Of a DNA stretch of 64,000 bases, positions 1,970-22,905 are shown one piece after another (position 1 is the stretch's first letter; each line of letters begins with the position of its first letter). The notes beneath the pieces are model-generated. The model had not been told where the DNA came from. It did no database searches and saw nothing but the letters and a program-made list of their open reading frames with translations. Source of the stretch: Streptomyces sp. NBC_00224 (lineage in GTDB: Bacteria > Actinomycetota > Actinomycetes > Streptomycetales > Streptomycetaceae); assembly GCF_041435195.1 (NCBI RefSeq), contig NZ_CP108106.1, forward strand, positions 7,329,001-7,393,000, read 5' to 3'. The position numbers and the translations under genes are program-made.

Positions 1970-3454
1970 ATGGGCGGTGCATTCGACCGGCGTGGTGCCG
2001 CTATCGCCGCCGCGCTCGGCGTGATCGCGCTTCTCCTCGGCCTTGTTCCGGCATCGGGGACAATTGCGCGGGACCGCGAGACGGGCGTTCAGGCCATTTA
2101 CGCCTGCGAGTCGGGCTCGGTGCGCCGGGCCGTCACCATCGGCTTCACCGGCGTCTATCCGCGGGGCGGCCGTCCCGGACAGCCGCTGCGGGCCGAGCGG
2201 TTCACCGTACGCCCCGAGCTGCCCCCCGACGCGGCCACCGCGCTCCTGCCCCCGGGCACCACACAGGTCTCCGGCACCGCCCGCCTCGCGGTCGAGGTCG
2301 CCCAGAACGGCACCTCGGCCCGCGCCGACTGGGCGGGGCTCACCGCGCCCGCTGCGAGCGGCCTGCGGCCGGTGTTCACGGGGGAGGTCGCGGCGATCAC
2401 GGTGGGGGCACCGGGGGAAGTGACGCTCATGGCGGGGGAGTTGACGTTGATGCTTCAGGCGACACCGGCACCGGATTCCCCATCGGGATCGGATTCCCCG
2501 TCGGGACTGGCTTCGGCTCCGGTACCGGGAACCTCGCAGTCGCCCAGCCCGTCGGGCATGCCCCAACATCCAACCCCCACAGCCCCGTTGGAGCTGCACT
2601 GCCTTCCTGTAGCAGCCCCTGGCCCGCTCCTCGCCGCCTGGACGGTGACCGGGCCCTCGGCCCCGAGCACTGCCCCCGCCTCCCCGGTCCCGTCCACGAG
2701 CGCGGACACCCAGACGCCCAAGCCCGCGATCCAGGTCGGCCCCGGCCCGCTCGCCACCGCGCCCGTCTGCCCGGCGGACCCGCCCGCCGGGGAGCTCAAC
2801 CCGAGCAGGCTGCCGAAGCCCCCGCCGGGGGCGGTCGAGGGCAGTCTGGGCGCCTCGCTCTGTGTGGTCGCCGTCGGCTACACCACCGTCCACAAGCTCG
2901 GCAGCGCGATGATCATCAACGATCCGCACGGCAGCCCCGGCCCGATGCACCTCAACCTCGGCAAGCGCACGGTCAGCGCCCCCGGCTACGACGAGTCGGA
3001 CTCGGTCGGACTGCTGCACTTCCCCGACGCCCGGTCCACGTTCCTCGTCTTTGGCTTCCAGCCCACCAGTGCCGAGGTCAGCTTCGAGCCGGAGCCGGTC
3101 ACCGTCGTCAACATCCGGCGCGGCGAGACGTTCACCACCGCCATCGCCTACCGGCAGTACCTGCGCGTCCACGACGTGAGCGTCAACGGAGTGCCGCTGG
3201 ACGTGGGGCCGCGCTGCCGCACCGCCCGGCCGTTCGACACCGTGCTGAGCGGTGCGTACAACTTCCTGACCGGCGGGGTCCTCGACGGGGAGATCACCAT
3301 CCCGCCGTTCGTCGGCTGCGGCGGCCGGGGCGAGGACCTGTCGCCGCTGTTCACCGCCGCCCTCTCCGGCCCGGGCAACGCCGTCCGGATCCGGCAGGGG
3401 CAGCTCGCGGGCGCCGGCAGCGCCCCGCCCGTCCCCGAACTGCCCCAGCGCTGA
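1970..3454 (+). CDS. Secreted protein, first gene of mce operon, DUF6801-like architecture
   Basis: This 494-residue protein starts at an ATG preceded by AGGAG and has an N-terminal hydrophobic segment (about residues 9-28) that looks like a signal sequence. The first domain (to about residue 165) begins with a Tyr-x-Cys motif near residue 42, and a second Cys (LHCLP, near 211) precedes a Pro/Ser/Thr-rich linker; both features parallel the DUF6801-like proteins at 17942-22905. The C-terminal module (about 288-485) aligns by eye with that of the protein at 17942-19273: a GFxPxxAxxxF stretch, a conserved Cys-Arg or Cys-Lys, and a GCGG/GCGA-to-SGPGN ending. Only 14 bases separate it from the ATPase gene, so it is co-transcribed with mce. 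Its function is unknown; an extracytoplasmic partner of the Mce importer is my inference. Confidence 0.85.
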   Translation: MGGAFDRRGAAIAAALGVIALLLGLVPASGTIARDRETGVQAIYACESGSVRRAVTIGFTGVYPRGGRPGQPLRAERFTVRPELPPDAATALLPPGTTQVSGTARLAVEVAQNGTSARADWAGLTAPAASGLRPVFTGEVAAITVGAPGEVTLMAGELTLMLQATPAPDSPSGSDSPSGLASAPVPGTSQSPSPSGMPQHPTPTAPLELHCLPVAAPGPLLAAWTVTGPSAPSTAPASPVPSTSADTQTPKPAIQVGPGPLATAPVCPADPPAGELNPSRLPKPPPGAVEGSLGASLCVVAVGYTTVHKLGSAMIINDPHGSPGPMHLNLGKRTVSAPGYDESDSVGLLHFPDARSTFLVFGFQPTSAEVSFEPEPVTVVNIRRGETFTTAIAYRQYLRVHDVSVNGVPLDVGPRCRTARPFDTVLSGAYNFLTGGVLDGEITIPPFVGCGGRGEDLSPLFTAALSGPGNAVRIRQGQLAGAGSAPPVPELPQR

Positions 3455-3468
3455 GGAGCCGCCTAGCC

Positions 3469-4524
3469 ATGGGAATCGACGTGGTCGTCGAGGGGCTGAC
3501 CAAGGCCTTCGGACGGCAGACCATCTGGCAGGACGTCACGCTCACCCTGCCCGCGGGCGAGATCAGCGTGATGCTCGGCCCCTCCGGCACCGGCAAGACC
3601 GTGTTCCTGAAAGCGATCGTCGGACTGCTCAGGCCGGACCGGGGCCGGGTCCTCGTCGACGGCGTCGACATGGCCAACAGCCGTGAGAAGGACATCTACG
3701 AGGCCCGCAAGCTCTTCGGGCTGCTCTTCCAGGACGGGGCGCTCTTCGGCTCGATGAGCCTCTTCGACAACATCGCCTTCCCGCTGCGCGAGCACACCAG
3801 GAAGAAGGAGTCGGAGATCCGCCGGATCGTCATGGAGCGCATGGACGTGGTGGGCCTGGCCGGAGCCGAGCGGAAGCTGCCCGGTGAGATCTCCGGCGGG
3901 ATGCGCAAACGGGCCGGTCTCGCGCGGGCGCTCGTCCTCGACCCGCAGATCATCCTCTGCGACGAGCCGGACTCCGGCCTCGATCCGGTACGCACCTCGT
4001 ACCTCTCCCAGCTGCTCATCGACATCAACACCCAGCTCGACGCGACCATGCTGATCGTCACCCACAACATCGACATCGCGACCACCGTCCCGGACAACAT
4101 GGGGATGCTGTTCTGCCGCGAGCTGGTCGCCTTCGGGCCCCGCGAGGTGCTGCTGACCAGCGAGGAGCCGGTCGTCGAGCAGTTCCTCACCGGGCGCAGG
4201 GCCGGGCCCATCGGCATGTCGGAGGAGAAGGACCGGGCGACCATCGCCGAGGAGGCCTCGCACGGCCTGGTCGTCGGCCCGCCCGTCCTGCGCACCCTGG
4301 CACCGCAGCTGGGACCCACCCCCGGCCTGCCGGTCCGCCGGGCCGTCCAGCGCCGCCGCGCCCGGGTGCGCGCGCTGCTCGACGAGCTTCCGCCCGCCGC
4401 CCGCGCGGCCGTCGAGGCGGATCTGCGGGACGCGCCGCAGCCCGCGGCGCCGGGCGGCGTCGACGGCGCCACGCTCGTACGGACAAGGCCCCTGCACACC
4501 TACGAGGGCGGGGGCCCGGCATGA
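3469..4524 (+). CDS. Mce/Mla-type ABC transporter ATPase (MceG-like)
   Basis: This 351-residue ATPase should power lipid transport through the YrbE permeases and MCE proteins. Walker A is GPSGTGKT near residue 37, the signature is ISGGMRKRAG near 143, and Walker B is IILCDEPDSGLD near 161, followed by the switch His in VTHN. The SGGMRKR form of the signature is typical of MlaF/MceG proteins. After about residue 250 there is a proline- and arginine-rich tail of about 100 residues not needed for the ATPase fold; mycobacterial MceG also has a C-terminal extension. GAGGAG lies in front of the ATG. The last bases overlap the next start codon (ATGA), so translation is coupled. In mycobacteria the ATPase is encoded away from the mce operons; here it is inside. 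Confidence 0.95.
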   Translation: MGIDVVVEGLTKAFGRQTIWQDVTLTLPAGEISVMLGPSGTGKTVFLKAIVGLLRPDRGRVLVDGVDMANSREKDIYEARKLFGLLFQDGALFGSMSLFDNIAFPLREHTRKKESEIRRIVMERMDVVGLAGAERKLPGEISGGMRKRAGLARALVLDPQIILCDEPDSGLDPVRTSYLSQLLIDINTQLDATMLIVTHNIDIATTVPDNMGMLFCRELVAFGPREVLLTSEEPVVEQFLTGRRAGPIGMSEEKDRATIAEEASHGLVVGPPVLRTLAPQLGPTPGLPVRRAVQRRRARVRALLDELPPAARAAVEADLRDAPQPAAPGGVDGATLVRTRPLHTYEGGGPA

Positions 4525-5351
4525 GCGCGCCTTCCGAGCCGGGGGCCAAGGGGGCCGTCGAGGCGCCGGTGCCACGGCCGCCGCTGCGCGTCCTCACCCC
4601 CCTGCGCGAGACCGGCAGGCTCTTCGCGCTGGGGTGGACCGTCGTACGGCTGACGTTCCGGCGGCCGTTCCAGGCGCGGGAGTTCATCGAGCAGTTCTGG
4701 TTCATCGCCAGTGTCACCATCCTGCCCGCGATGCTGGTGACGATCCCGTTCGGCGCGGTCATCGCCCTCCAAGTGGGCTCCCTCATCCAGCAGTTCGGCG
4801 CCCAGTCCTTCACCGGCGGCGCGAGCGTGCTCGTCCTCGTCCAGCAGGCCAGCCCGCTCATCGTGTCGCTGCTGATCTCCGGGGTGGCGGGCTCGGCGAT
4901 CTGCGCGGACCTCGGTGCGCGGACGATCCGCGAGGAGCTGGAGGCCATGGAGGTCATGGGCGTCTCGCCGGTGCAGCGGCTCGTCGTGCCCAGGGTCCTC
5001 GCGGTCATGTCGGTCGGGCTGCTGCTCAACGGCCTGGTGTCGGTGGTGGGGACGCTCGGCGGCTACTTCTTCGCCGTGATCGTGCAGCACGGCACCCCCG
5101 GCGCGTACCTCGCCAGTTTCTCCGCCCTCGCCCAGCTCTCCGACCTGCTGATCGGCGAACTCAAGGCGGTGCTCTTCGGGTTCATCGCCGGAGTGGTCGC
5201 CGCCTACCGGGGCCTGCACCCCAAGGGCGGGCCGAAGGGCGTGGGGGACGCGGTGAACCAGTCCGTCGTCTTCACCTTCCTGATCCTGTTCTTCGTCAAC
5301 ATGGTGCTGACGGCCCTGTACCTCCAGCTGGTCCCGGCGAAGGGGCTCTGA
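4521..5351 (+). CDS. yrbE1A: MlaE/YrbE-family ABC permease A
   Basis: This 276-residue integral membrane protein belongs to the MlaE family, with the typical segments EFIEQFWFIASVTILPAML, the substrate-path helices, and the conserved REELEAMEVMGVSPVQRLVVPR motif that couples to the ATPase. About five to six hydrophobic helices are visible. It overlaps the ATPase stop by 4 bases and ends 1 base before the second permease. YrbEA and YrbEB form a heterodimer in the cytoplasmic membrane, on which the six MCE proteins sit. Confidence 0.93.
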   Translation: MSAPSEPGAKGAVEAPVPRPPLRVLTPLRETGRLFALGWTVVRLTFRRPFQAREFIEQFWFIASVTILPAMLVTIPFGAVIALQVGSLIQQFGAQSFTGGASVLVLVQQASPLIVSLLISGVAGSAICADLGARTIREELEAMEVMGVSPVQRLVVPRVLAVMSVGLLLNGLVSVVGTLGGYFFAVIVQHGTPGAYLASFSALAQLSDLLIGELKAVLFGFIAGVVAAYRGLHPKGGPKGVGDAVNQSVVFTFLILFFVNMVLTALYLQLVPAKGL

Positions 5352-5352
5352 C

Positions 5353-6234
5353 ATGGCGCTCCTGGACCGGGCCCGCGGCCGCACCCGTACCGACACCGGA
5401 GCCGGAGCCGGAGCCGGAGCACGCGAGCCGAGCCGGCTGTTCGCCTGGCTGGACCGCCCCGGCGACGAGCTCCTGTTCTACCTCCGCGCCCTCCTCTGGA
5501 TCCCGCGCGCGGTCCGCCGTTACCCCAAGGAGGTCCAGCGCATCTTCGCCGAGGTCTCCTTCGGCACCGGCGGGCTGAGCGTCATCGGCGGCACGGTCGG
5601 CGTGATGATCGGCATCACCGTCTTCACCGGAACCGTCGTCGGCCTCCAGGGGTACGCGGCGCTCAGCCAGATCGGCACCGACGCCTTCACCGGCTTCGTC
5701 TCCGCGTACTTCAACACCCGCGAGATCGCCCCGCTGGTAGCCGCGCTCTCCCTCTCCACCACGGTGGGCGCGGGCTTCACCGCCCAGCTCGGCGCGATGC
5801 GCATCAATGAGGAGATCGACGCGCTGGAGAGCATGGGGGTGCGCTCGATGCCGTACCTCGTCTCGACGCGGATCGTGGCGGGCGCGGTGGCGATCGTCCC
5901 GCTGTACGGGATCGGGCTGCTCGGGTCGTTCCTGGCGTCCCGGATGGTCACGGTCCTCTTCAACAACCAGTCCACCGGCACCTACGACCACTACTTCCAC
6001 CTCTTCCTCGCCCCGACCGACGTGCTGCTCTCCTTCCTCAAGGTGCTGGTCTTCAGCGTCCTGGTGATCATGGCGCACTGCTATTACGGCTACCGCGCCA
6101 CCGGCGGACCGGCGGGCGTCGGCGTGGCCGTGGGCCGGTCGGTGCGGACCGCGATCGTGCTGATCAGCGTCACGGACTTCTTCCTCAGCCTGGCGCTGTG
6201 GGGCGCCACGACCACGGTGAAGGTGGCGGGATGA
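5353..6234 (+). CDS. yrbE1B: MlaE/YrbE-family ABC permease B
   Basis: This is the second permease, 293 residues, paralogous to its neighbour. It keeps the coupling helix INEEIDALESMGVRSMPYLV and the polar GTVVGLQGYAALSQIGTDAF stretch. The N-terminal 20 residues are Gly/Ala-rich from a small GGAGCC repeat in the DNA (about 5397-5420), a likely length-variable spot. It ends in an ATGA overlap with the first MCE gene. Confidence 0.93.
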   Translation: MALLDRARGRTRTDTGAGAGAGAREPSRLFAWLDRPGDELLFYLRALLWIPRAVRRYPKEVQRIFAEVSFGTGGLSVIGGTVGVMIGITVFTGTVVGLQGYAALSQIGTDAFTGFVSAYFNTREIAPLVAALSLSTTVGAGFTAQLGAMRINEEIDALESMGVRSMPYLVSTRIVAGAVAIVPLYGIGLLGSFLASRMVTVLFNNQSTGTYDHYFHLFLAPTDVLLSFLKVLVFSVLVIMAHCYYGYRATGGPAGVGVAVGRSVRTAIVLISVTDFFLSLALWGATTTVKVAG

Positions 6235-7547
6235 GCGCGCCCGTGCGGGAGAGGCCTTTCGGCACCCGGGCGAAGGAGCGCCCGGTGGACACCGTGCTCG
6301 CCCGCCGCCGCAGACTGGCCGGGCTGGTGTACCTGCTCCTGCCGATCCCCCTGATCTGGCTGTCGCTCGCCTTCTACCACCACGACTTCGAGGACACCGC
6401 CCGGGTGGTCGTGGAGGCCGGATCGGTCGGCAACGAGATGCGCCCGCAGGCCGATGTGAAGCTGCGGGGCGTGGTGATCGGGCGCGTCGAGAAGATCGAC
6501 ACGGACGGCAGGACCGCCCGGCTCACCCTCGCCATGAGGCCGGGGCAGCTGCGCCGGGTGCCCTCGGACGTATCGGCCCAGTTGCTGCCCACCACGCTCT
6601 TCGGCCAGCGGTACGTGGCGCTCGTGCCGCCCGCGCGGCCCTCCGCGCGACCGCTGGCGCCCGGCAGCGTCATCCCGAAGGACCGCAGCCGCAAAGCCGT
6701 CGAGCTGGAGACGGCGCTCAACCACCTGCTGCCGCTGCTGACCGCCGTACAGCCGCAGAAGCTGTCCGCGACGCTCACGGCCGTCTCGGACGCACTGCGC
6801 GGACGCGGCGACAAGATCGGTGCGTCACTGGCCCAACTCGACGCGTATCTGGGGAAGTTCAACCCTCAGCTGCCCGTCCTCAACCGGGACATCAAGGAGT
6901 TCGTGCGGGTGAGCGAGGGGTACGCGCAGGCGGCGCCGGATATCGTCGACGCGCTCTACGACGCGACCACCACCAGCGCCACGCTCGCCGCCGAGCAGCA
7001 CCGACTGGCGGCGGTGTACGCGTCGGTGACCACCTCGTCGCGGGACCTCACCACCTGGATCCGGCAGAACCGGGCCAACCTCATCCGGGTCACGGCCACG
7101 AGCCGCCCCTCCCTCCAGATCTTCGGCCGGTACGCCCCCGCCTTCCCCTGCACCCTGAAGACCCTTGCCGACTTCGTCCCCGCGATGGACCGCGCCCTCG
7201 GCAAGGGCACCGACGAGCCGGGGCTGCACGTCGACGTGACGGTGGTCCGGGACCGGGGTGCCTACCGGCCGGGCCATGACGCGCCGAGCTACACCGCCAC
7301 CGGCGGCCCGGCCTGCCACCCGGTCCCCTACGGCGGCCCCACGGCATCGGGCCGGGACCCGGCGAACGCTTCCCCGGCGCTCGCCACGGTCGGCGGCGGG
7401 CTCGGCGTGGCCAACTCCCCGCAGGAGAACACCCTGGTGAACGAGGTGCTCGCGGCCGGGGACAGGCGGACGCCCGACGCGCTGCCCGACTGGTCGAGCG
7501 TGTTCGCCGGGCCGGTGCTGCGGGGAGCGGAGGTGAGGCTGAAGTGA
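6231..7547 (+). CDS. mceA: MCE-family protein A
   Basis: I start this at ATG 6231, inside the upstream stop, giving 438 residues. A longer frame exists upstream, but it would overlap the permease needlessly. One membrane helix (about 28-46) is followed by the MCE domain (about 55-130; VKLRGVVIGRVEKI is the typical strand pair), then a long helical region predicted to form part of the hydrophobic tunnel. In Mce1 and Mce4 of mycobacteria the A-F proteins make a heterohexameric tube across the periplasm. The C-terminal third is Pro/Gly-rich and probably loops out. Confidence 0.93.
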   Translation: MSAPVRERPFGTRAKERPVDTVLARRRRLAGLVYLLLPIPLIWLSLAFYHHDFEDTARVVVEAGSVGNEMRPQADVKLRGVVIGRVEKIDTDGRTARLTLAMRPGQLRRVPSDVSAQLLPTTLFGQRYVALVPPARPSARPLAPGSVIPKDRSRKAVELETALNHLLPLLTAVQPQKLSATLTAVSDALRGRGDKIGASLAQLDAYLGKFNPQLPVLNRDIKEFVRVSEGYAQAAPDIVDALYDATTTSATLAAEQHRLAAVYASVTTSSRDLTTWIRQNRANLIRVTATSRPSLQIFGRYAPAFPCTLKTLADFVPAMDRALGKGTDEPGLHVDVTVVRDRGAYRPGHDAPSYTATGGPACHPVPYGGPTASGRDPANASPALATVGGGLGVANSPQENTLVNEVLAAGDRRTPDALPDWSSVFAGPVLRGAEVRLK

Positions 7548-8578
7548 ACCGGGCCCCACTCACCGGACCGCTCGTCAAGTCGGCGGTCTTCGTCCTGGTC
7601 ACCGTGCTGGCCACCACCGTGCTCGCGCTGAGCATCAGCAACACGGGCCTGGGCGACAAGGACACGTACAAGGCGTGGTTCACCGACGCCACCGGGCTCA
7701 CCGAGGGCGACTCGATACGGATCGCGGGCGTCAAGGTCGGCCAGGTCGAGTCGGTCGGCATCGTCCAACGCCGGTACGCGGAGGTGAAGTTCTCCGTGAA
7801 GCGGGGCAGGGCGCTGCCCGCCTCCAGCACCGCCTCGATCAAATACCTCAACATGGTCGGCCAGCGCTATGTCGCCCTGGAGCGCGGCACCGGCCCGCTC
7901 GGGCAGCCGCCGCTGCGGCCGGGCGGGACGATTCCGCTGCGCCGCACCTCGCCCGCGCTCGACCTCACCCAGCTGTTCAACGGCTTCCAGCCGCTCTTCC
8001 AGGGGCTCTCCCCGGCCGAGACCAACAAGCTGGCCGGCTCTGTCGTCCAGGTCCTCCAGGGCGAGGGCCCCACCGTGGAGAGCCTGGTCACCGCCATCGG
8101 GTCGGTCACCAGCACGCTCGCCGCCAAGGACACGGTGATCGGGTCGGTCGTCGACAACCTCAACACCGTGCTGCGGACGGTCAACACCCGCGAGACCCGG
8201 CTGACCGGCCTCATCGACACCCTCGACGAGCTGGTGGCGGGCCTCTCCGGCGACCGCAAGCCCATCGGGCAGGCGATCAGCTCCCTCGCCGCGCTGACCA
8301 CCAGCACCGCGGGACTGCTCGACGAGGGCCGGGCGCCGCTGCGGAGCAGCATCGACCAGCTGGGCCGGGTCTCCGCCAACCTCGCGGACAACGGGCCGCT
8401 GCTCGAACAGTTCCTGCGGCGCACCCCCGCCAAGATGCGGGCCGTCACCCGCCTTTCCTCGTACGGGAGTTGGCTCAATCTGTATCTCTGCGAGGCCAGG
8501 GTCACCGGGGTCGCCACCGACGACGGCAGCCCGCCCCCCACCGGCATCGCGATCAAGGACCAGAGGTGCCGCCGATGA
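7544..8578 (+). CDS. mceB: MCE-family protein B
   Basis: This protein has 344 residues from a GTG that overlaps the previous stop (GTGA). A membrane anchor (about 12-30) is followed by the MCE domain, recognisable from DATGLTEGDSIRIAGVKVGQV, then a long alpha-helical stretch with heptad-like repeats. The end carries LSSYGSWLNLYLCEARV, the conserved cysteine-containing C-terminal motif of the MceB/C group. It is the second subunit in A-F order. Confidence 0.93.
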   Translation: MNRAPLTGPLVKSAVFVLVTVLATTVLALSISNTGLGDKDTYKAWFTDATGLTEGDSIRIAGVKVGQVESVGIVQRRYAEVKFSVKRGRALPASSTASIKYLNMVGQRYVALERGTGPLGQPPLRPGGTIPLRRTSPALDLTQLFNGFQPLFQGLSPAETNKLAGSVVQVLQGEGPTVESLVTAIGSVTSTLAAKDTVIGSVVDNLNTVLRTVNTRETRLTGLIDTLDELVAGLSGDRKPIGQAISSLAALTTSTAGLLDEGRAPLRSSIDQLGRVSANLADNGPLLEQFLRRTPAKMRAVTRLSSYGSWLNLYLCEARVTGVATDDGSPPPTGIAIKDQRCRR

Positions 8579-9672
8579 CGTCCTTACGCATCCGACGCAT
8601 CCGACGCGTCCGCGAACAGGCGCGCAGACCGCTCGCCGAGCGGCACCCCGTGGCGATCGCCGTCGTCGGTCTGCTCGCCATGTCCCTGATCGGGCTGCTC
8701 GTCTACAACGTCAAGGCGCTGCCCTTCCTCGGCGGCGGGACGCGCTACACCGCCGACTTCAAGGAGTCGGCCGGGCTCCACCCCGGCGACGAGGTCCGCA
8801 TCGCGGGCGTGAAGGTCGGCGAGGTGAACGCGGTCGGGCTCGACGGGCCCAAGGTGAAGGTGGCCTTCACCGTCAAGGACGCCTGGGTCGGCGACGCCAG
8901 TACGGTCGGCATCGCCATCAGGACGCTCCTCGGCTCCAAGTACCTGGCGGTCGACCCGCGCGGCACCGCCGCCCAGAACCCGCACCGGCGCATCCCGATC
9001 GCCCGCACGACCTCCCCGTACGACGTGCTGGACGCGCTCGACGGACTCGGCGAGACCGTGGGCGAGCTCGACACGCGGTCGCTCGCCAAGAGCTTCGAGA
9101 CGCTCTCGGCCACCTTCAGGAAGACCCCGCCGAACGTGCACAAGGCCGTCACCGGCCTGGCCGACCTGTCGCTGACCATCGCCGGCCGCGACGAGCAGAT
9201 CACCCGGCTGCTCAAGGGCACCGACCAGGTCACCAGGACGCTGGACGGCAAGAAGGACCGGGTGCGCGGCCTGCTCGCCAACGGCGGGCAGCTCCTCGCC
9301 GAGGTCGGCTACCGCAGGGACGCCATCCACGGCCTGCTCACCGGTGCCCAGAACCTGAGCGCCCAGCTCAGCGGGGTCGTCACGGACAACCGGGCCAGGC
9401 TCGGCCCCGCACTCGACTCGCTCGACCGCGTCACGGCGGTCCTCACCAGGAACAAGGCGGGCCTCGACAGGATCCTGGCTCAGGCGGGGCCGTACTACCG
9501 CCTGGTCGGCAACACCCTGGGCAACGGCCACTGGATGGACAGCTATCTGTGCGGCCTCGTCCCCAAGACGTATCTGCCCCCGGGCAGCACACCACCGGAC
9601 GGCTGCATGCCCCCGAAGTCAGGGAGCCCGAAACCAAGGGACATGAAACCACCGAAGGGGAGCCGGAGTTGA
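8575..9672 (+). CDS. mceC: MCE-family protein C
   Basis: ATG at 8575 overlaps the preceding stop and gives 365 residues. There is an arginine-rich N-terminus, a membrane helix (about 25-45), then the MCE domain with SAGLHPGDEVRIAGVKVGEV. The helical domain ends in WMDSYLCGLVP, parallel to the MceB ending. The Pro/Lys-rich tail overlaps the start region of the next gene. Confidence 0.93.
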   Translation: MTSLRIRRIRRVREQARRPLAERHPVAIAVVGLLAMSLIGLLVYNVKALPFLGGGTRYTADFKESAGLHPGDEVRIAGVKVGEVNAVGLDGPKVKVAFTVKDAWVGDASTVGIAIRTLLGSKYLAVDPRGTAAQNPHRRIPIARTTSPYDVLDALDGLGETVGELDTRSLAKSFETLSATFRKTPPNVHKAVTGLADLSLTIAGRDEQITRLLKGTDQVTRTLDGKKDRVRGLLANGGQLLAEVGYRRDAIHGLLTGAQNLSAQLSGVVTDNRARLGPALDSLDRVTAVLTRNKAGLDRILAQAGPYYRLVGNTLGNGHWMDSYLCGLVPKTYLPPGSTPPDGCMPPKSGSPKPRDMKPPKGSRS

Positions 9673-13632: not shown

Positions 13633-13646
13633 CGGGAGGGGACACC

Positions 13647-14213: not shown

Positions 14214-14231
14214 GGCGAGTGGGGAGGTGCC

Positions 14232-14816
14232 ATGGCACGGATGACAGCGGCGGTGCGCAGACGGCCGTCGCGGACCGCGGCGACTGGCCTCGCGGCCGCG
14301 TTGGCCTGCGCGTTCGCCGTCTGGACGGGCGGTTCCTGGTACGCGGTCGCGCACGACGAGCGGGCCGCGTTCGCCCGTACCAGGGACGAGGTGCTGCAGG
14401 CGGGCGAACAGGGCGTGCAGAACATGAACACCCTCGACCACGGCGACCTCGCCCACGGCCTCGACCTCTGGGAGGAGTCGGCCACCGGCGACCTGCTCAA
14501 GGAACTCAAGGACAGCAGGAAGCAGTTCGAGCGGCAGGTCGAGAGCGCGGGGACCACGACCACCGCCAAGGTGGTCTCCGGCGCGGTCACCGAACTCGAC
14601 GAACGGGCGGGGCGGGCACGGGTGATGGTCGCGATCCGTATCACCGTGGTCGCGGCGGACCACGCGAGCAGCACCAAGGACAGCCGGATGCTCGGTGAAC
14701 TGACCCGCACCCCGGCGGGCTGGAAGCTCAGCCGACTGGGCCAGGCACCCGTCGGCGACGCGGCCGGTCCGTCCGCCACCCCGTCCGCCGGTCCGCCCAC
14801 CCCCAGCGGCAGCTGA
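14232..14816 (+). CDS. Mce-associated membrane protein (type A copy 2)
   Basis: This 194-residue protein is the second copy of the type A unit, with one membrane helix near residues 18-38 and the GWKLSRL ending. It carries an extra Pro/Ser-rich tail of about 20 residues. GGGGAGGTGCC precedes the ATG. It follows copy 1 of type B and precedes copy 2 of type B, so the order A-B-A'-B' is clear. Confidence 0.85.
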   Translation: MARMTAAVRRRPSRTAATGLAAALACAFAVWTGGSWYAVAHDERAAFARTRDEVLQAGEQGVQNMNTLDHGDLAHGLDLWEESATGDLLKELKDSRKQFERQVESAGTTTTAKVVSGAVTELDERAGRARVMVAIRITVVAADHASSTKDSRMLGELTRTPAGWKLSRLGQAPVGDAAGPSATPSAGPPTPSGS

Positions 14817-14830
14817 CCCGGAGGCCCCCG

Positions 14831-15508
14831 ATGCCGACCACCCGCCACCTCGTCAACCGGCAGCGCCGCCTGGCCGCGGCGCGCCCGCCCGCCCCACGGC
14901 CGGCCGAGCCCGAGCAGCGCCCGACGCCCGCCCCGCGCCACGCCGCACCCGCCACCCGCCCTGCCAGGCCGCCCTGGCCGCTGGTGCTCGCCGTCCTGAC
15001 CGTGCTGCTCGCCGCGTTCTCCGTCCTCGCGTACGTCCAGGGCGGGCACGGGCACCAGGACACCGCCGTGCGCAACACCGCACTGGCCGACACCGCCCGT
15101 ACCAGCGAGGTCAAGGGCGTCGTCGACGAGGCCGTGCAGGGGATCTTCTCGTACGACCACACCGACCCGGCCAGGACCGAGACGGCGGCCGCGAGCCGTC
15201 TCACCGGCGCGGCCGTCGCGCAGTACCGGACCCTGATGGGGCCGGTGCGCGAGCAGGGGCCGCGGCAGAAACTCGTGCTGACCACCACCGTCACCGACAG
15301 CGGCGTCGAGGTCATCGACGGGGGCCGCGCCCGCGTCCTGGTCTTCGCCGACCAGAGCAGCACGCGTACCGGCAAGGGCGGCGGCACCACCGTCGCCGCC
15401 GCGATGTTCGCGGTCGACGCGGTCCACCAGGACGGCACCTGGCGGATCGCCGCCCTCGACACCTTCCAGCGCGCACCGGGCACCCGGACCGACCAGGGCA
15501 AGGAGTGA
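14831..15508 (+). CDS. Mce-associated membrane protein (type B copy 2)
   Basis: This 225-residue protein is the second copy of type B. The cytoplasmic part is longer (about 50 residues, Pro/Ala/Arg-rich) before the membrane helix at about 53-73. The outer domain is collinear with that of the protein at 13647-14213. Its stop overlaps the next GTG by 4 bases. Confidence 0.85.
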   Translation: MPTTRHLVNRQRRLAAARPPAPRPAEPEQRPTPAPRHAAPATRPARPPWPLVLAVLTVLLAAFSVLAYVQGGHGHQDTAVRNTALADTARTSEVKGVVDEAVQGIFSYDHTDPARTETAAASRLTGAAVAQYRTLMGPVREQGPRQKLVLTTTVTDSGVEVIDGGRARVLVFADQSSTRTGKGGGTTVAAAMFAVDAVHQDGTWRIAALDTFQRAPGTRTDQGKE

Positions 15509-16092
15509 GAGCCGTGTTTCCTCGACAGGTGAACCGGACGGCGGCGCGCCTCGCGCTGCTCGCCGCCGTCGGCCTGGCGGCCGCCGGGTGCGGCTCCTCG
15601 GCACAGCCGCCGCCGGAGGTGGACTGGGCGGGCGGAGTCTGCGCACATCTGGCGGACAGCGGGGCCGGACTCGCGGTGCCCACGGTCGACCGGACGCAGC
15701 CGGTGCGGGCCAAGGGCCAGCTGGTCACCTTCCTCACCGCGCTCTCCCAGCGGCTCGGGGCGCTGCGCGCGGACCTGCGGAAGGACGGGGCGCCGCCGGT
15801 CGAAGGCGGCGCGGCCGCCCTCGGCACGGCCCTCGCCCATCTGGACAAGGCCCGTACGTCGGTGGGCGACGCGGTCGCCACGCTCTCCAAGGCCGAGGTC
15901 ACCGACCAGAAGTCGCTGAAGTCGGCGCTGGACGCGGCCGGTTCGTCCCTGAAGACGGTGAGCGCGTACAAGGGCCCCGCCGACGACCTGCGGGCGGACC
16001 CGAAGCTGCGGAAGGCCTTCGACGACAACCCGGACTGCGCCGAGGCCGTCGCCGCGGCCGGGGGTGGACAGGGGCCGAGCGATGGATCCTGA
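15505..16092 (+). CDS. Predicted lipoprotein in mce operon
   Basis: This protein has 195 residues from GTG 15505, which overlaps the preceding stop. The N-terminus ends in LAAAGC, a lipobox with Cys near 29. The mature part is largely helical (many Ala/Leu/Lys heptads) with a Cys near 45 and another near 178, which could pair. I do not recognise a named domain. Its place between the Mas genes and the DUF5819 gene suggests an outer-face accessory of the Mce system. The gene end overlaps the next start by 11 bases. Confidence 0.8.
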   Translation: MRAVFPRQVNRTAARLALLAAVGLAAAGCGSSAQPPPEVDWAGGVCAHLADSGAGLAVPTVDRTQPVRAKGQLVTFLTALSQRLGALRADLRKDGAPPVEGGAAALGTALAHLDKARTSVGDAVATLSKAEVTDQKSLKSALDAAGSSLKTVSAYKGPADDLRADPKLRKAFDDNPDCAEAVAAAGGGQGPSDGS

Positions 16093-16741
16093 AGCCGAGC
16101 GCCACGAAAGCCTGGCGGAGCTGTCGCGGGGGCAGCGGCTGGCCGTCGTCGTCGCCGCGGCCGCCGTCGCCGTGGGCCTGCTCGTCCACACCGGCGCGAC
16201 TTTCCTGCACCTCGCCCCGCGCAACGCGGCCACCGACGCCATCGGCGACACGGTCAACTCCTATATGGCGCCCGAGTTCTCGCAGAGCTGGCAGCTCTTC
16301 GCGCCGGACATCACCCGGACCATGACGGCGGTCGGCGCCCGCGTCGAACTGCGTACGGCGGACGGTACGACCCGGACCGGCCCCTGGCGGGACCTGACCG
16401 CGCAGGACCTGGCCGAGCTGCGCGGCAACCCGCTGCCGAGCCGTATCCGCCAGCAACTCGCCACCGCCTGGACGACGATGCTCGCCTCGCACGACGCCGA
16501 ACAGCGGCCGGTCGGCCCGGGCGGCCTCGACAGCGAGCAGTACCTCAAGCGCCTCGCCCTGTCCCGGATGCCCGCCACGCCGCGGGGCGCGCGCATCGAA
16601 CGGATCCAGTTCCGCTCGACCGACACCACCGTCCCGCCCCCGCCGTGGAAGGCGCGCGGCACCCGCACCGCGCCGGTGGTGCGGATCTATCCCTGGTGGC
16701 CGGTAAGCACAGCCGACCTCGCTCAGGGGCGTACGTCATGA
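16082..16741 (+). CDS. DUF5819-family membrane protein
   Basis: ATG at 16082 gives 219 residues. One membrane helix lies near residues 19-41, followed by an outer domain with SYMAPEFSQSWQLFAPD, which I recognise as the DUF5819 signature, and a YLKRLALSRM segment. Proteins of this group are often found directly before HTTM genes, as here (4-base overlap). Function is not established. Confidence 0.85.
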   Translation: MDPEAERHESLAELSRGQRLAVVVAAAAVAVGLLVHTGATFLHLAPRNAATDAIGDTVNSYMAPEFSQSWQLFAPDITRTMTAVGARVELRTADGTTRTGPWRDLTAQDLAELRGNPLPSRIRQQLATAWTTMLASHDAEQRPVGPGGLDSEQYLKRLALSRMPATPRGARIERIQFRSTDTTVPPPPWKARGTRTAPVVRIYPWWPVSTADLAQGRTS

Positions 16742-17970
16742 AGCCACAACCAGCCGGTGAGAAACCAGCCGGTGAGAGAGCCGAGTCGACGCTGGACCGG
16801 GTGCTCGGGCGGGCGTGCGACGCGCGCATGTGGGCCCATCAGGCCGCGGCCGTACGGATCGGCACGGCCGGGGTCTGGCTGCTGCTCCTCGTCCACGAGT
16901 TCCGGCGGCGCGAGCGGATCTGGGGGCCGGACGCCCCGTGGAGCTGGCGGCTGGCGGAGCACTCGCTCGACCGGAGCCATGCGTTCAGCGTGCTGCGCTG
17001 GTCCGGCGGCGCCTTGTGGTTCGAGGTCTTCTACATGCTCTCGGCGGCCGTCGCGACGGCGCTCCTGCTCGGCTGGCGCACCCGGACCGCCTCCCTGCTG
17101 TTCCTCATCAGCGTCCTCTCCCTCGACCACCGCAACGAGAACGTCCTCAACGCGGGCGACACCATTTTCCGCATCACGGCGGTCTACCTCGTCTTCACCC
17201 GGTGCGCCCAGGTGTGGTCGCTGGACGCGCGTCGGCGCGGGCGCGCCCCGGACGCGGGCGACCGCACGGGCGTGGTGCTGTGGTCCGGCTGCGGCCTGGT
17301 CCTCGCCTGGGCGACGCTGCTCGCGCTGCTCACCGGTGGCTGGGCGCTGCTGCTGTGGGGTTGCTGGGCGGGCCAGGCGCTGTGGCGCGGGGTGCGCGGC
17401 CGTCCGGGGGTGCGCCGCACCCTGGAGCTGATCGGCCATCTGCTGCACAACGGCGCGGTGGCGATGATGATGATCCAGCTGTGCCTGCTGTACGCGTCGG
17501 CCGGCTGGTACAAGATCCAGGGCGCGCCCTGGCAGGACGGCACCGCCGTGTACTGGTCGGCCGGGCTCGACTGGCTGGAGCCGTACCCCGCGCTCTCGCA
17601 CGCCCTCTCCTCGCACGCCCTGACCGTCCTGGCGCTGACGTACGGAACCGTGCTCGTCCAGGTCGCCTTCCCGTTCAGCCTCCTCGACCGGCGGGTCAAG
17701 AACGTCCTGCTCGCGCTGCTGTTCGCCGAGCACATCGGCATCGGGCTGCTGCTCGGGCTGCCGTACTTCTCGCTCTCGATGATCGCGGCCGACCTGGTGT
17801 TCCTGCCGACCGGGTTCCTGGTGGCGGCGGGGGAGCGCGTCGTCGGGCTGCGGCGCCGCCTGACCGGTGACGGGCGACCGGCCCCCGACGCCCGGGGCGC
17901 GGAGGCCGGTCTGGCGGCCCGCTCGGAGGAAGGGGACGGGGTCACCCCTTCTTGGCGAGCGTCATGTTGA
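16738..17970 (+). CDS. HTTM-domain polytopic membrane protein (gamma-carboxylase-like)
   Basis: This 410-residue protein has six or more hydrophobic helices. The segments AAVRIGTAGVWLLLLVHEFRR near the start, LDHRNENVLNAGDTIF in the middle and SAGWYKIQGAPWQDGTAVYW later match the HTTM (vitamin K-dependent gamma-carboxylase-like) family. Bacterial members have no agreed substrate. The ATG overlaps the DUF5819 stop, so it closes the mce operon. Its last 29 bases overlap the convergent gene at 17942-19273. Confidence 0.88.
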   Translation: MKPQPAGEKPAGERAESTLDRVLGRACDARMWAHQAAAVRIGTAGVWLLLLVHEFRRRERIWGPDAPWSWRLAEHSLDRSHAFSVLRWSGGALWFEVFYMLSAAVATALLLGWRTRTASLLFLISVLSLDHRNENVLNAGDTIFRITAVYLVFTRCAQVWSLDARRRGRAPDAGDRTGVVLWSGCGLVLAWATLLALLTGGWALLLWGCWAGQALWRGVRGRPGVRRTLELIGHLLHNGAVAMMMIQLCLLYASAGWYKIQGAPWQDGTAVYWSAGLDWLEPYPALSHALSSHALTVLALTYGTVLVQVAFPFSLLDRRVKNVLLALLFAEHIGIGLLLGLPYFSLSMIAADLVFLPTGFLVAAGERVVGLRRRLTGDGRPAPDARGAEAGLAARSEEGDGVTPSWRASC

Positions 17971-19273
17971 TCGTGTTGCCCGGGCCCGAGGTGAAGGCGC
18001 TGAGGATGTCGTTGAACGCGCCGCAGCCCTTGAGGGGCGGCAGGGTGTACGTGCCCTTCAGCTTGCCGCCGCTCAGCGGGTCGAACCTGCCCTCCGACGT
18101 GAGGTCGACGGCGGCGGGGGTGCCGGACTTGCAGTCCGCGCCGCCGCCCAGCGGGATGCCGAAGACGGCGATCTCGGGGAGCTTCACGTACATGCTGGAC
18201 TTGGTGGTGAGGTCACCGGCGGTGTTGAGCGTGCCGTTCGTCCAGCCGACCTGCTGGAACTCGATCTTCGCGGTCGCGGGGAGGAAACCGAGGATCGAGA
18301 ACTTGCCCGAGGTCGGGTTCAGCGTCAGATCGGCGTTGTACGTGCCCGAGGCGAGGTCGAAGTCGGCCTCGATGCCACCGGCCAGCGCGGCGGTCCCGTT
18401 CGCCGCCTTGATGGCCGAGCTTCCGGTGAGGCCGTAGCTCAGGTGGATGGGCGGGTTCGGGTTGGTGGGATTGGTGGGGCTAGTTGGGTTGGTGGGGTTG
18501 GTTGGACTTGTGGGGTTCGTAGGGTCGGTCGGGTTTGTTGGGTTCGTGGGGTTCGTAGGGCTTGTGGGGTTGGTCGGATTCGTAGGGTCGGTCGGATTCG
18601 TGGGGTTGGTGGGGTTGGTCGGGTTCGTGGGGTTGTTGTCCACGACCTTGAAGCGGTGCAGGGTCTTGTCCGTCGACGTCAGGGTGCACGCGGCGTCGAA
18701 CGTGTCCTTGCCCGTGACCAGTTGAACCGGCTTGCCGTTGGCGTCCCGCGCGATCATGTCGTGCAGCGAGATGTTGTTGACGTCGATGCTGCCGTCGCCG
18801 GTCTTGTCGAAGGTCAGCGGGGGCGCGTGGCCCGTGGCGATGACGCTGAAGTCGGCGGGCGGGCTGGGGATGTTGCCCTTGGCCACGTCGTTCTCGACCT
18901 TGATCCCGGAGAGCGGTCCGGACGGGGTGTTCACCGTGACGTCGGCGGTGGCCTTGCCCTCCAGGGTCCTGGCGCCGACCAGCCCCAGACCCTGCGCGGC
19001 CCGGGAGCTCACCAACGTGTTCGCGTTGATTTCGAAGGCCGGGGTCGCCTGGCCCATCGGGATCTCGGCCGGTATGTCGGCCGTGATGGTGATTTTGATC
19101 GGGTCGGCGTTGATCAGGGGGAAGACGCAGGAGTAGTCCTGCACCAGTTTGGCCGGTACCGCCGCTGCCGGGCCGGCGGCGGTGACCGACACCGTGGCGG
19201 TGACCACGCCGATGGCGGCGGTGACGGCCAGGGTGGACAGCGCCCCCTTGGTCCGCTTTCTCTGAATTCCCAT
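17942..19273 (-). CDS. Secreted DUF6801-like protein with NPT-repeat linker and unknown C-terminal module
   Basis: I start at ATG 19273 (443 residues), with GAGGGAG just upstream; a longer frame adds only a poor leader. A signal sequence (about 1-40) precedes the DUF6801-like domain (about 41-205), with Cys near 49 in YSCVFP and a second Cys near 195. Residues 211-274 are about 20 three-residue units (Asn/Asp/Ser-Pro-Thr). The C-terminal module (275-443) resembles that of the mce operon's first gene, with the same GCGA...FTSGPGN ending. No membrane anchor is seen, so it is probably released or bound non-covalently. A HrdB-like promoter lies at 19317-19345. Confidence 0.88.
   Translation of the reverse strand: MGIQRKRTKGALSTLAVTAAIGVVTATVSVTAAGPAAAVPAKLVQDYSCVFPLINADPIKITITADIPAEIPMGQATPAFEINANTLVSSRAAQGLGLVGARTLEGKATADVTVNTPSGPLSGIKVENDVAKGNIPSPPADFSVIATGHAPPLTFDKTGDGSIDVNNISLHDMIARDANGKPVQLVTGKDTFDAACTLTSTDKTLHRFKVVDNNPTNPTNPTNPTNPTDPTNPTNPTSPTNPTNPTNPTDPTNPTSPTNPTNPTSPTNPTNPNPPIHLSYGLTGSSAIKAANGTAALAGGIEADFDLASGTYNADLTLNPTSGKFSILGFLPATAKIEFQQVGWTNGTLNTAGDLTTKSSMYVKLPEIAVFGIPLGGGADCKSGTPAAVDLTSEGRFDPLSGGKLKGTYTLPPLKGCGAFNDILSAFTSGPGNTINMTLAKKG
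18452..18640 (-). repeat. Nine-base tandem repeats encoding (N/D/S)-P-T linker
   Basis: About 20 copies of a 9-base unit encode Asn-Pro-Thr with Asp or Ser variants inside the gene at 17942-19273. Codons vary between units (AAT/AAC, CCC/CCT/CCA, ACG/ACC/ACA), so the protein pattern is kept while the DNA has drifted; it is not a recent expansion. The linker is probably extended and Thr-rich, a possible O-mannosylation site. Confidence 0.85.
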
Positions 19274-19538: not shown

Positions 19539-20585
19539 ATGGGAGTTCCTAAAAACAGAACCAGGGTGAAATGCGCGCTCGGCGGCTCTGCGGCCCTCGC
19601 GCTGGCGGGCGGCGCGCTCCTCTCGTACGGGGTGGGCAGCGCGGCCGCGGTGGAGGCCCGGCTTTCGCAGACGTACGAGTGCAAGTTCCCGCTGATCGGG
19701 GCGGATTCGCTGAAGGTGGCGATCACTGCACAGCTGCCCGCCTCGGTTCCGGTGAACACCCAGACGGGCGCGATACGGATCGACGCGCTGTCCACGGTGA
19801 GCGCGCGGGCGGCGCAGGGCCTCGGGCTCGTGGGCGCGAAGACCGTGGAGGGGATCGCCTCGGCGAGCGCCACGGTGAACCTGCCGGGCGGCGACCAGCT
19901 CGACGTGGGCCTCGACACCACCGTGGCGAAAGCCGATGTGCCCGCTCCGGCCAGGGATTTCGACGTCAAGGCGTCCGGCGCGGCCCCGTCGCTCTCCTTC
20001 CGCAGACCCGGCTCGGCCACCATCGACGTCAACGCGATCACGCTGAAACTGACGGCCCGGGACGCGGCGGGCAAGGTCGTCCAACTGCCGCCCTACGAGG
20101 ACGTGTTCGAGGCGCCCTGCGTGCTCAAGCCGCCCGACCAGAACAAGACACTCCACCGCTTCACCATCACGGGCGCCGACCCGACGGGCCCGACCCCCAC
20201 CGGCCCGACCCCGTCCTCTCCACCTCCTTCCGGCCCCTCCCCGACCGGCTCCGCGACGGCCGGGCCCGGTCCGACGGGACCGTCCCCGACCGGCCCGAGC
20301 CCGACCGGGCCCGGCGGCACTCCAGGCCCGACCGGGCCCACCGGAACCGGCGGGCCCGGCTCGTCCGCCCCGCCGGCCGGCACGACCGGAGGCACCTCCG
20401 GCGGCACCGACCTGGTCACCCACGTCAACGGCCCCGGTGACGGCGGCGGCAGCCTCGCGGGCACCGGCGCCGCCGCCGCGGGCTGGCTGCTCACCGGTGC
20501 CGGAGTGCTCGGCGCCGCGGGCATCGCGGCCCTCCACCACGTGCCGCGCCGCATCCGGGGCGAGGGCGACGACGGGACCGTATGA
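19539..20585 (+). CDS. Secreted DUF6801-like protein with LAGTG sortase-type C-terminus
   Basis: ATG 19539 gives 348 residues. I prefer it to ATG 19494 because the paralogues all start MG-x-x-K/R, the conserved Cys then falls at residue 48 as in the others, and the promoter at 19501-19529 lies downstream of 19494. A signal sequence (1-38) and DUF6801-like domain (to about 215) are followed by a Pro/Gly/Thr/Ser-rich linker (about 222-300). LAGTG sits at residues 306-310, then a hydrophobic stretch and a basic tail RRIR. This is a LAXTG-type sorting signal as used by class E sortases in Streptomyces, so covalent attachment to peptidoglycan is likely. Confidence 0.88.
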   Translation: MGVPKNRTRVKCALGGSAALALAGGALLSYGVGSAAAVEARLSQTYECKFPLIGADSLKVAITAQLPASVPVNTQTGAIRIDALSTVSARAAQGLGLVGAKTVEGIASASATVNLPGGDQLDVGLDTTVAKADVPAPARDFDVKASGAAPSLSFRRPGSATIDVNAITLKLTARDAAGKVVQLPPYEDVFEAPCVLKPPDQNKTLHRFTITGADPTGPTPTGPTPSSPPPSGPSPTGSATAGPGPTGPSPTGPSPTGPGGTPGPTGPTGTGGPGSSAPPAGTTGGTSGGTDLVTHVNGPGDGGGSLAGTGAAAAGWLLTGAGVLGAAGIAALHHVPRRIRGEGDDGTV

Positions 20586-20606
20586 GCCGTACGCGTACGG
20601 CCGAAG

Positions 20607-21587: not shown

Positions 21588-21663
21588 ACGGGTTCCCCCT
21601 GAGAGCTCGTGGAGACGGAAGTGGGCCGGTCGCGGGGTGCGACCGGCCCGGGGGAGGCGCGAC

Positions 21664-22905
21664 TCACGTCAGGGTGAGGGTGAGCACGGCCTTGTAGTCG
21701 CCCGCGGCGGCCGTCGCGGGGATGTCGAGGGAGAGCGCGCCGTCCACGCTGAACTGACCGCCGGTGGCGGCCGCGTCGGGCGCCCCGGCCAGGGTGGCGC
21801 CGACGGTGCCGACGGGGCCCTCGGTCCCTGCCACGCAGTTGCTCTTGGAACCGGGGGCCGCCACGCACGCGGGCTTCCAGCTGAGCTTGTCCGCGCCGAT
21901 CGCGCCGACGGTGCCGGTCGCACCGGTGAAGTCGGTGACCTTGCCGGTCAGCGACCAGCCGGTGGCGCCGTTGCGGCCGTCCTTGACGGTGACGGTCTGA
22001 AGACTGCCGCTGGAGACGCCGCCCACGCCCTGGTTCACGGCGGAGAGGGCCACGCTGTCACCGGGCTGACTCATGGAGAGCGTGCCGGCCGCGGCCTTCA
22101 CCTGGGTGCTCAGGTTCTGCTGAGCGGTGGAACCGGAGGGTGCGGTGGGGTTGGTGGGGTTAGTGGGGTCGGTCGGGTTTGTTGGATTGGTGGGGTTGGT
22201 GGGATTCGTAGGGTTGGTCGGGTCCGTCGGGTTGGTGGGATTCGTTGGGTTCGTTGGGTTCGTGGGATTCTTCGGCACGACCTTGAAGCTCGCGAGGACC
22301 TTGTCCGTCGACTTCATCGTGCACGGCGCGTCGAACGTGTCCTTGCCCGTGACCAGCTGGATCGGCTTTCCGTTGGCGTCGCGCACGATCATGTCGTGCA
22401 GACCGATCCCGTTCACCTCGATGCGTGCGTCGCCCACCGTGTTGAACGTGAGTGAAGGCGCGTTGCCCTTGGCGTTGACCGTGAAGTCCGCGGGCGGGCT
22501 GGGAATGTTGGTCTTGTCGACCGTGTTCTCGACGCCGATTCCGGAGAGCGGTCCGTCCGGCGTGTATACCGTGACGGTCGCCGTCGCCTTGCCCTCCAGC
22601 GTCTTGCCGCCGACGAGTCCGAGCCCTTGTGCCGCCCGTGCGCTGACCTTCGTGGCCGTGTTGACCGCGAATGCGGGCGACGCCGTTCCCACTTCGATCT
22701 CGGTCGGTATCTCGGCCGTGATGGTGGCCTCGATCGGGTCGCTGCCGATCAGCGGAAATACGCAGTCGTACTGCTGGACCAGCTTTGCCGGGGCCGCCTG
22801 TGCGGTCCCGGCGCCCGCGAAGCCGAGAAGCCCCGCGACGACTCCACCGGCGGCGGCGACGGCCAGGGCGGATCTCGCCCCGGACTTTCTCTGCTGAGCT
22901 CCCAT
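21664..22905 (-). CDS. Secreted DUF6801-like protein with NPT-repeat linker and WxL domain
   Basis: This 413-residue protein starts at ATG 22905. A signal sequence (1-39) and DUF6801-like domain (about 40-205; Cys near 48 and near 196) precede about 14 units of N/D-P-T (211-253). The last 160 residues look like a WxL domain: a DGRNGATGWSLTGKVTDF stretch with the first W-x-L, and a YKAVLTLTLT ending where the second W-x-L is usual but Trp is replaced by Leu. WxL domains bind the cell wall non-covalently. The neighbour at 20607-21587 is the likely WxL-interacting partner. Confidence 0.85.
   Translation of the reverse strand: MGAQQRKSGARSALAVAAAGGVVAGLLGFAGAGTAQAAPAKLVQQYDCVFPLIGSDPIEATITAEIPTEIEVGTASPAFAVNTATKVSARAAQGLGLVGGKTLEGKATATVTVYTPDGPLSGIGVENTVDKTNIPSPPADFTVNAKGNAPSLTFNTVGDARIEVNGIGLHDMIVRDANGKPIQLVTGKDTFDAPCTMKSTDKVLASFKVVPKNPTNPTNPTNPTNPTDPTNPTNPTNPTNPTNPTDPTNPTNPTAPSGSTAQQNLSTQVKAAAGTLSMSQPGDSVALSAVNQGVGGVSSGSLQTVTVKDGRNGATGWSLTGKVTDFTGATGTVGAIGADKLSWKPACVAAPGSKSNCVAGTEGPVGTVGATLAGAPDAAATGGQFSVDGALSLDIPATAAAGDYKAVLTLTLT
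22146..22272 (-). repeat. Nine-base tandem repeats encoding (N/D)-P-T linker
   Basis: About 14 units of Asn-Pro-Thr or Asp-Pro-Thr are encoded in the gene at 21664-22905, the same linker type and the same position after the DUF6801-like domain as in the gene at 17942-19273. Codon drift between units is again visible. Confidence 0.85.

What the first reader, a model, noticed from the sequence alone, without database searches (positions are those of the whole stretch)
1970..22905. Mce locus bracketed by one family of secreted proteins with exchangeable C-terminal tails
The first gene of the mce operon and three genes just beyond its end encode secreted proteins that share an N-terminal plan: a signal sequence, Tyr-x-Cys near residue 42-49, a second Cys before a low-complexity linker. 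Their tails differ: an unknown module shared by two of them (1970-3454 and 17942-19273), a sortase-type LAGTG (19539-20585) and a WxL domain (21664-22905). The same binding domain thus seems to be delivered free, covalently anchored and wall-bound around a lipid importer. I infer an extracellular lipid or sterol capture system that hands cargo to the Mce tube.
Basis: partly seen in the sequence, partly recalled or inferred. Interest (0 to 1): 0.75.

Follow-up and report, generated by a model that had tools for sequence, protein, structure and literature searches.

The report
Surface barrel proteins beside Mce transporter
A lipid-transporter gene cluster in a soil bacterium is flanked by four related secreted proteins, two of which carry an unnamed, probably barrel-shaped domain that travels with this branch of transporters in several bacterial families and may help lipids enter or leave them.

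Summary
All four proteins match Pfam DUF6801 above its cut-off and are the only matches in the 9.18 Mb genome. Tails: an unnamed module shared by two (profile E 8e-21), LAGTG, and a borderline WxL with a WxLIP-like gene between. Of 35 other DUF6801-bearing genomes in a family sample, 28 have it 2.6-3.4 kb from the Mce permease; four further mce loci carry a homologue that Pfam misses, so 33 of 44 mce-bearing genomes have it there. The other 11 show none; their loci group apart in a 43-locus permease tree.

Best reading: extracytoplasmic lipid-handling partner of one Mce clade. Lipid binding, direction and cargo are unproven; sterol has no specific support.

The parts
1970..3454 (+). Head gene: secreted DUF6801 + C-terminal barrel-module protein (P0001), 14 bp before the Mce ATPase gene
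   Evidence: PF20611 E 4.4e-11; AF2 mean pLDDT 87; head position in other genomes
2843..3415 (+). C-terminal barrel module of the head gene (residues 292-482)
3469..4524 (+). Mce ATPase (MceG/Mkl type)
   Evidence: ABC_tran E 3.4e-28
4521..5351 (+). YrbEA permease
   Evidence: MlaE E 1.3e-63
5353..6234 (+). YrbEB permease
   Evidence: MlaE E 2.8e-61
6198..7547 (+). MceA
   Evidence: MlaD and Mce4_CUP1
7544..8578 (+). MceB
   Evidence: MlaD and Mce4_CUP1
8575..9672 (+). MceC
   Evidence: MlaD E 6.5e-16
9549..10715 (+). MceD (start codon not settled)
   Evidence: MlaD E 8.9e-14
10712..11887 (+). MceE
   Evidence: MlaD E 1.3e-19
11884..13125 (+). MceF
   Evidence: MlaD E 1.9e-18
13129..16092 (+). 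Four small genes (13129, 14232, 14831, 15505), putative Mce-associated proteins
   Evidence: homologues after MceF in other loci; the Mas label is by position, no strong Pfam match
16064..17970 (+). DUF5819 gene and HTTM gene ending the run
   Evidence: PF19136 E 1.2e-46; PF05090 E 4.4e-8
17942..19273 (-). Secreted DUF6801 + barrel module, second subfamily (P0004)
   Evidence: PF20611 67.5 bits; module profile match E 7.7e-21
19539..20585 (+). DUF6801 with LAGTG sortase-type tail (P0003)
   Evidence: PF20611 82.3 bits; LAxTG in the four homologues found; 10 sortase matches in the genome
20607..21587 (-). WxLIP-like protein with C-terminal hydrophobic stretch (P0006)
   Evidence: WxLIP_PGBD 22.4 bits, cut-off 27.3; 7 of 7 members match at E<0.1, best 2.7e-9
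21664..22905 (-). DUF6801 with WxL-like tail (P0005)
   Evidence: PF20611 75 bits, WxL 28.6 bits, cut-off 25; only WxL match in the genome
23754..30614 (+). PUFA-synthase-like protein: NMO (ER-type), KS, AT, ACP, KR
   Evidence: homologue beside the block in L077-L080, L082 and L084
30508..35112 (+). PUFA-synthase-like protein: KS, AT, DH, phosphopantetheinyl transferase

Best explanation
The 1970 protein is the prototype of an unrecognised extracytoplasmic partner of one clade of actinobacterial Mce transporters. Its constant part is a C-terminal module predicted as a beta-barrel of the eight-stranded type; its DUF6801 beta-sandwich is a frequent but optional N-terminal partner. Shown: homology, the place of the gene at or near the head of mce loci, co-occurrence, clade restriction in the loci sampled, predicted folds. 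Inferred: the barrel sits at the outer (portal) end of the Mce tube and shields a lipid on its way into or out of the tube. In this Streptomyces clade the unit is duplicated and DUF6801 has further anchors (sortase LAGTG, WxL-like tail plus WxLIP-like partner), so that it is presented free, covalently wall-bound and non-covalently wall-bound around the transporter.
Against: No binding, interaction or expression data. Without coordinates I could not tell whether the barrel interior is hydrophobic; several strands are amphipathic in the alignment, which does not decide it. Whole-model Foldseek gave no E<1e-3; a shared fold shows no function. Six mce-bearing genomes have no module copy within 15 kb of MlaE (three of them only on other contigs), two have no MlaE, and 22 of the 65 module matches counted are not within 15 kb. 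Of 44 mce-bearing genomes in the family sample, 11 show no such gene at their mce loci. In some genomes the gene is divergent from the operon (L068), so co-transcription is not universal.
Confidence: 0.55

Rival explanations
1. The system handles a lipid made next door: the PUFA-type synthase at 23754-35112 makes a long-chain lipid, and Mce plus the DUF6801/barrel proteins export, place or recycle it in the wall. It is not scavenging of outside sterols.
For: Synthase domains NMO-KS-AT-ACP-KR and KS-AT-DH-PPTase. A homologue beside the DUF6801 block in 5 of 6 Streptomyces loci fetched by the second-subfamily search, and beside a DUF6801/barrel cluster in Herbihabitans (57% identity), whose fetched stretch shows no mce gene although the genome has MlaE. 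A PKS2-like stretch (53%) lies on the same 20 kb as the head gene and mce in L104.
Against: L081 has the block without the synthase in the stretch held. Only 8 of 60 loci over 5 kb gave any synthase hit at E 1e-20, one of them weak (36%, L099), so most mce loci with the head gene show none nearby. The six loci were chosen by the second-subfamily module, not at random. Synteny may reflect recent common descent.
Confidence: 0.25
2. Sterol or lipid capture system: DUF6801 binds sterol outside and hands it to Mce.
For: mce linkage; weak Foldseek similarity of the DUF6801 model to NPC2 and RhoGDI, which bind sterol and prenyl groups (recalled). Mce4_CUP1 Pfam matches carry 'cholesterol' only as a family name.
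Against: The DUF6801 model matches other Ig-like sandwiches as well (arrestin, ApaG); the best match is an uncharacterised C. diphtheriae protein, 3lso. DUF6801 occurs without MlaE and on an fn3-bearing protein.
Confidence: 0.1
3. Structural role: the barrel/DUF6801 proteins cap or stabilise the Mce tube in the thick wall and bind no lipid.
For: Same linkage and clade data; wall anchors and WxL/WxLIP-like parts.
Against: Most head-position proteins whose sequence I printed end in the module without a visible wall anchor (two with LPATG, L074 and L075); that is weak evidence.
Confidence: 0.15
4. The genes downstream of mce are an ordinary surface-adhesion island that only happens to lie there.
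For: WxLIP-like relatives of P0006 occur in 71 of 121 family genomes, so that part is common; DUF6801 occurs on a large fn3 protein.
Against: The block lies beside mce genes in L077-L081 and beside mce-associated genes at a contig end in L082; all four DUF6801 matches of the genome are here; parallel DUF6801/barrel clusters lie beside mce in Actinomadura L085, L094, L098 and in G419.
Confidence: 0.1

Closest known systems
Actinobacterial Mce transporters (Mce1/Mce4; Streptomyces mce6 with SCO2422 ATPase)
   Same: Two YrbE, six Mce proteins, Mkl-type ATPase upstream of yrbE (PMC1810536, passages seen)
   Different: A secreted barrel/DUF6801 gene directly upstream of the ATPase, not mentioned in the passages of that paper that I saw
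LucB (Mce1 accessory subunit)
   Same: An accessory protein of one Mce transporter (PMC9882608, passages seen)
   Different: LucB is a membrane protein encoded away from mce1 (by its locus tag); the barrel proteins are secreted and mce-linked
WxL gene clusters of Firmicutes (WxL plus DUF916/DUF3324 WxLIP)
   Same: WxL-like tail and a WxLIP-like partner with a C-terminal hydrophobic stretch (PMC10599100, passages seen)
   Different: The N-terminal cargo is DUF6801; WxL match borderline, second WxL motif missing; next to a lipid transporter
Corynebacterial HtaA/ChtA hemophores feeding HmuTUV
   Same: Logic only: one binding domain on several surface proteins thought to deliver to an ABC importer (PMC12494546, passages seen)
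   Different: No homology shown; different transporter and no known ligand
Eight-stranded barrels OmpW, NspA, OmpA, OprG, and DynF
   Different: No PDB sequence match better than E 0.58; OmpW, NspA, OmpA and OprG are outer-membrane proteins

Membership tests
Actinobacterial Mce locus | ATPase, two YrbE permeases, six MCE-domain proteins | tested here: met
DUF6801 (PF20611) | Pfam gathering score in all four proteins | tested here: met
   43.6-82.3 bits against 26
WxL domain (PF13731) | Pfam gathering score | tested here: inconclusive
   28.6 bits whole protein, 18.8 without linker, cut-off 25; of four homologues scanned singly two are over and two under the cut-off; 8 of 8 members at E<0.1, best 2e-10
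WxL domain (PF13731) | two Trp-x-Leu motifs | tested here: not met
   WSL invariant; the second conserved Trp is followed by xP, not xL; so WxL-like only
WxL-interacting protein (PF06030) | Pfam gathering score for the window protein | tested here: not met
   22.4 against 27.3 bits; 7 of 7 members match at E<0.1, best 2.7e-9; WxLIP-like only
Sortase substrate | LPxTG-type motif, hydrophobic stretch, basic tail, sortase in genome | tested here: met
   LAGTG and tail by eye; LAxTG in the four homologues found; 10 PF04203 matches. That class E sortases read LAxTG is recalled; anchoring itself was not tested
OmpW/OmpA-type or calycin-like barrels | sequence-level relationship | tested here: inconclusive
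   no PDB sequence match better than E 0.58; fold match only
Lipid-binding protein | bound lipid | not testable with these tools
   needs purification and lipid analysis
PUFA-type lipid synthase | KS, AT, ACP, KR, DH, ER-type NMO, PPTase domains | tested here: met
   that PfaD-type ER falls in the NMO family is recalled; product not tested

The most novel reading that the evidence does not exclude
A whole lipid pathway is encoded side by side: a PUFA-type synthase makes a lipid, a clade-specific Mce machine moves it across the membrane, and a new family of secreted barrels with interchangeable DUF6801 anchors receives or delivers it in the cell wall. It would be an Mce system for an endogenous lipid in an ordinary monoderm bacterium, with the missing extracytoplasmic carrier identified.
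Probability: 0.22. Interest if true: 0.82.

Novelty: new variant of a known kind. Interest (0 to 1): 0.66.

Why it matters
How lipids reach or leave the outer end of the Mce tube is open; the Mce1 authors allow for 'additional unknown factors' (PMC9882608, passages seen). A barrel family without a Pfam or NCBIfam model, found in 32 of 34 cases in mce-bearing genomes and often placed at the head of one clade of mce loci, is a concrete candidate, and it can be tested in Streptomyces.

Tried and rejected

Limits: the tree holds 43 loci; 10 of the 33 head-gene loci of the family sample are in it, and those from other families were chosen because they carry the module or DUF6801 (L115 excepted). 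Genome searches score a capped number of first-look candidates per genome (in the class searches; 18), so counts can be too low. Absence of the head gene in the 11 genomes refers to stretches of up to 20 kb; L113 has only 566 bases upstream of the ATPase hit. The 28 linked genomes rest on a DUF6801 match near MlaE; the module was confirmed by profile only in those whose loci I held. Rows dropped: the split lesser pieces of G394 and G477 were not entered again (their genomes are counted), and the two sub-cut-off DUF6801 rows at the foot were not entered (their genomes are counted). Entry mechanism, direction and cargo are inference.

Full report
WHAT IS THERE. The window holds a complete actinobacterial mce operon: ATPase (3469), two MlaE permeases (4521, 5353), six MCE proteins (6198 to 13125), followed by small genes, a DUF5819 gene and an HTTM gene. 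Its first gene, 1970-3454, ends 14 bases before the ATPase gene. Beyond the last gene lie four surface-protein genes, 17942-22905: three on the minus strand, one on plus.

THE TAILS. The 1970 and 17942 proteins share a C-terminal module: BLASTP E 1e-10, and 99.3% probability, E 7.7e-21 when each subfamily is compared as a profile. No credible Pfam family in 45 copies (one stray match at 0.0078) and no NCBIfam family in 45. 19539-20585 ends in LAGTG, a hydrophobic stretch and a basic tail; the four homologues found at that place read LAGTG, LAGTG, LAATG and LASTG; the genome has ten sortase matches. 21664-22905 ends in a WxL-like domain: over the Pfam cut-off as a whole protein but not as an isolated domain; all 8 members of its alignment match at E<0.1, yet the second conserved Trp is not in a WxL motif. 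Between them, 20607-21587 is WxLIP-like: below cut-off in the window, but all 7 members match at E<0.1, best 2.7e-9. So the block resembles a Firmicutes WxL cluster (PMC10599100, passages seen) carrying DUF6801 as cargo. WxLIP-like relatives are common in the family, 71 of 121 genomes, so that part is not specific to mce.

LINKAGE OF DUF6801 TO MCE. In a sample of 121 family genomes, 36 have DUF6801 and 44 have MlaE, own genome included in both. Of the 35 others with DUF6801, 28 have it 2.6-3.4 kb from MlaE; five have no MlaE; two (G049, G102) have it far away. Four mce loci without a nearby Pfam match (G049, G057, G065, G074) do carry a homologue of the 1970 protein at the same place, its DUF6801 part too divergent for Pfam or cut by a contig end. 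With the own genome, 33 of 44 mce-bearing genomes have it at an mce locus. The mce loci of the remaining eleven genomes were fetched (L057-L064, L108-L113) and show none, with the reservation that L113 has little upstream sequence. In L068 the gene is divergent from the operon. Five further same-genus genomes of the class sample have DUF6801: three within 3.3-5.1 kb of MlaE, two without MlaE. In other families, 24 genomes of the class sample have DUF6801; in 8 it lies within 12 kb of MlaE, in 11 it does not although MlaE exists, and 5 have no MlaE. In G203 and G380 the gene directly before the ATPase is DUF6801 with an LPATG sortase-type tail: the same place, another anchor.

THE MODULE THAT TRACKS MCE. 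A profile of 45 module copies finds it in 34 of 393 class genomes. MlaE is in 129 of 393 but in 32 of these 34 (Fisher p 5.5e-15). In 26 of 34 it lies within 15 kb of MlaE, where about 0.8 are expected by chance; six have both but not within 15 kb (G203, G351, G422 on the same contig; G308, G344, G388 on others); two have no MlaE (G223, G270). Of 65 matches counted, 43 are within 15 kb. In Actinosynnema (L088) and in G372, G246 and G394 (L100, L101, L106) the gene before yrbEA or before the ATPase carries the module with no DUF6801 match. A YrbEA+B tree of 43 loci puts the 25 module-bearing loci on one side of one branch with 100/99 support (0 of 500 label shuffles as low); the 11 main loci without it from the family sample fall with L114 in another starred group, and three divergent extra loci (L109, L111, L112) elsewhere. 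The rows from other families were picked because they carry the module or DUF6801, except L115, so this is support for clade restriction, not a census.

THE DOWNSTREAM BLOCK ELSEWHERE. A scan of named genomes with the 17942-type protein gave 23 loci. YrbE or Mce genes lie in the fetched flank of 10 (L077-L081, L085, L088, L094, L096, L098); L082 shows mce-associated genes up to a contig end; the other 12 show none, or only a weak associated or generic ATPase hit. Of 14 of these genomes searched whole, including those 12, all 14 have MlaE. L077-L082, all Streptomyces, have the WxLIP-like gene and further DUF6801 genes in the block; a LAxTG gene is seen in four (L077, L080-L082) and not in L078 and L079. 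Actinomadura loci and G419 carry parallel clusters of several DUF6801/module genes next to mce.

HOW IT MOST LIKELY WORKS. Shown: homology, position, co-occurrence, clade restriction in the sample, predicted folds. Inferred: because Streptomyces has no outer membrane (recalled), a secreted barrel is best read as a soluble container, placed at the outer end of the Mce tube, whose entry step is unexplained in Mce1 (PMC9882608, passages seen). Anchored DUF6801 siblings would concentrate or position cargo in the wall. Direction and cargo are open. Next to the block lies a two-protein PUFA-type lipid synthase; a homologue sits beside the block in 5 of 6 Streptomyces loci (not seen in L081) and beside a DUF6801/module cluster in Herbihabitans; a further synthase-like stretch lies on the mce-bearing 20 kb of G326 (L104). 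It was not seen near most head-gene mce loci held here. This makes an endogenous lipid a serious alternative to scavenged sterol, for which I found no specific support.

PRINT. DUF6801 is named in no paper of the searched library. Among the titles listed by searches on Streptomyces mce and on Mce accessory factors (20 of 60, 20 of 22, 15 of 24 and 15 of 370 papers; titles and starts of abstracts seen) none speaks of a secreted mce-head protein. The 2007 survey of mce operons names the ATPase upstream of Streptomyces yrbE in the passages that I saw (PMC1810536). The 2013 Streptomyces mce paper is not held. Secondary lipid synthases of unknown product in Streptomyces are described in PMC3098273 (passages seen), whose main text has no word beginning with 'mce'.

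VERDICT. Observation confirmed; interpretation partly supported and shifted from DUF6801 to the unnamed barrel module. A new variant of a known kind: Mce systems with a clade-specific secreted barrel partner.

Noticed in passing
23754-35112: Two-gene PUFA-type lipid synthase next to the block; the first gene has a homologue beside it in 5 of 6 Streptomyces loci.
   Followed up: partly
16064-17970: DUF5819 and HTTM genes close the mce run; homologues are seen at that end in L077-L082. Role unknown.
   Followed up: no
L073:1510-14957: G419 has five DUF6801-bearing open frames in 14 kb beside an mce locus, one of 1248 residues with two DUF6801 and the barrel module.
   Followed up: partly
L086:7355-10507: Protein of 1051 residues: two DUF6801, five fn3, barrel module; long proteins with DUF6801 at one end and the module at the other also in Actinokineospora and Amycolatopsis loci (L087, L090, L091, L095, L097) with no Mce gene in the stretch held.
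   Followed up: partly
L111, L112: G007 carries two very divergent mce loci with the ATPase gene after the second YrbE on long branches.
   Followed up: no
G203, G308, G351, G422: Genomes of about 3 Mb in family f22 with 5 to 8 DUF6801 matches each, several in tandem on one open frame.
   Followed up: no
38594-40752: DNA ligase and LigD-type primase genes side by side, perhaps an end-joining pair.
   Followed up: no
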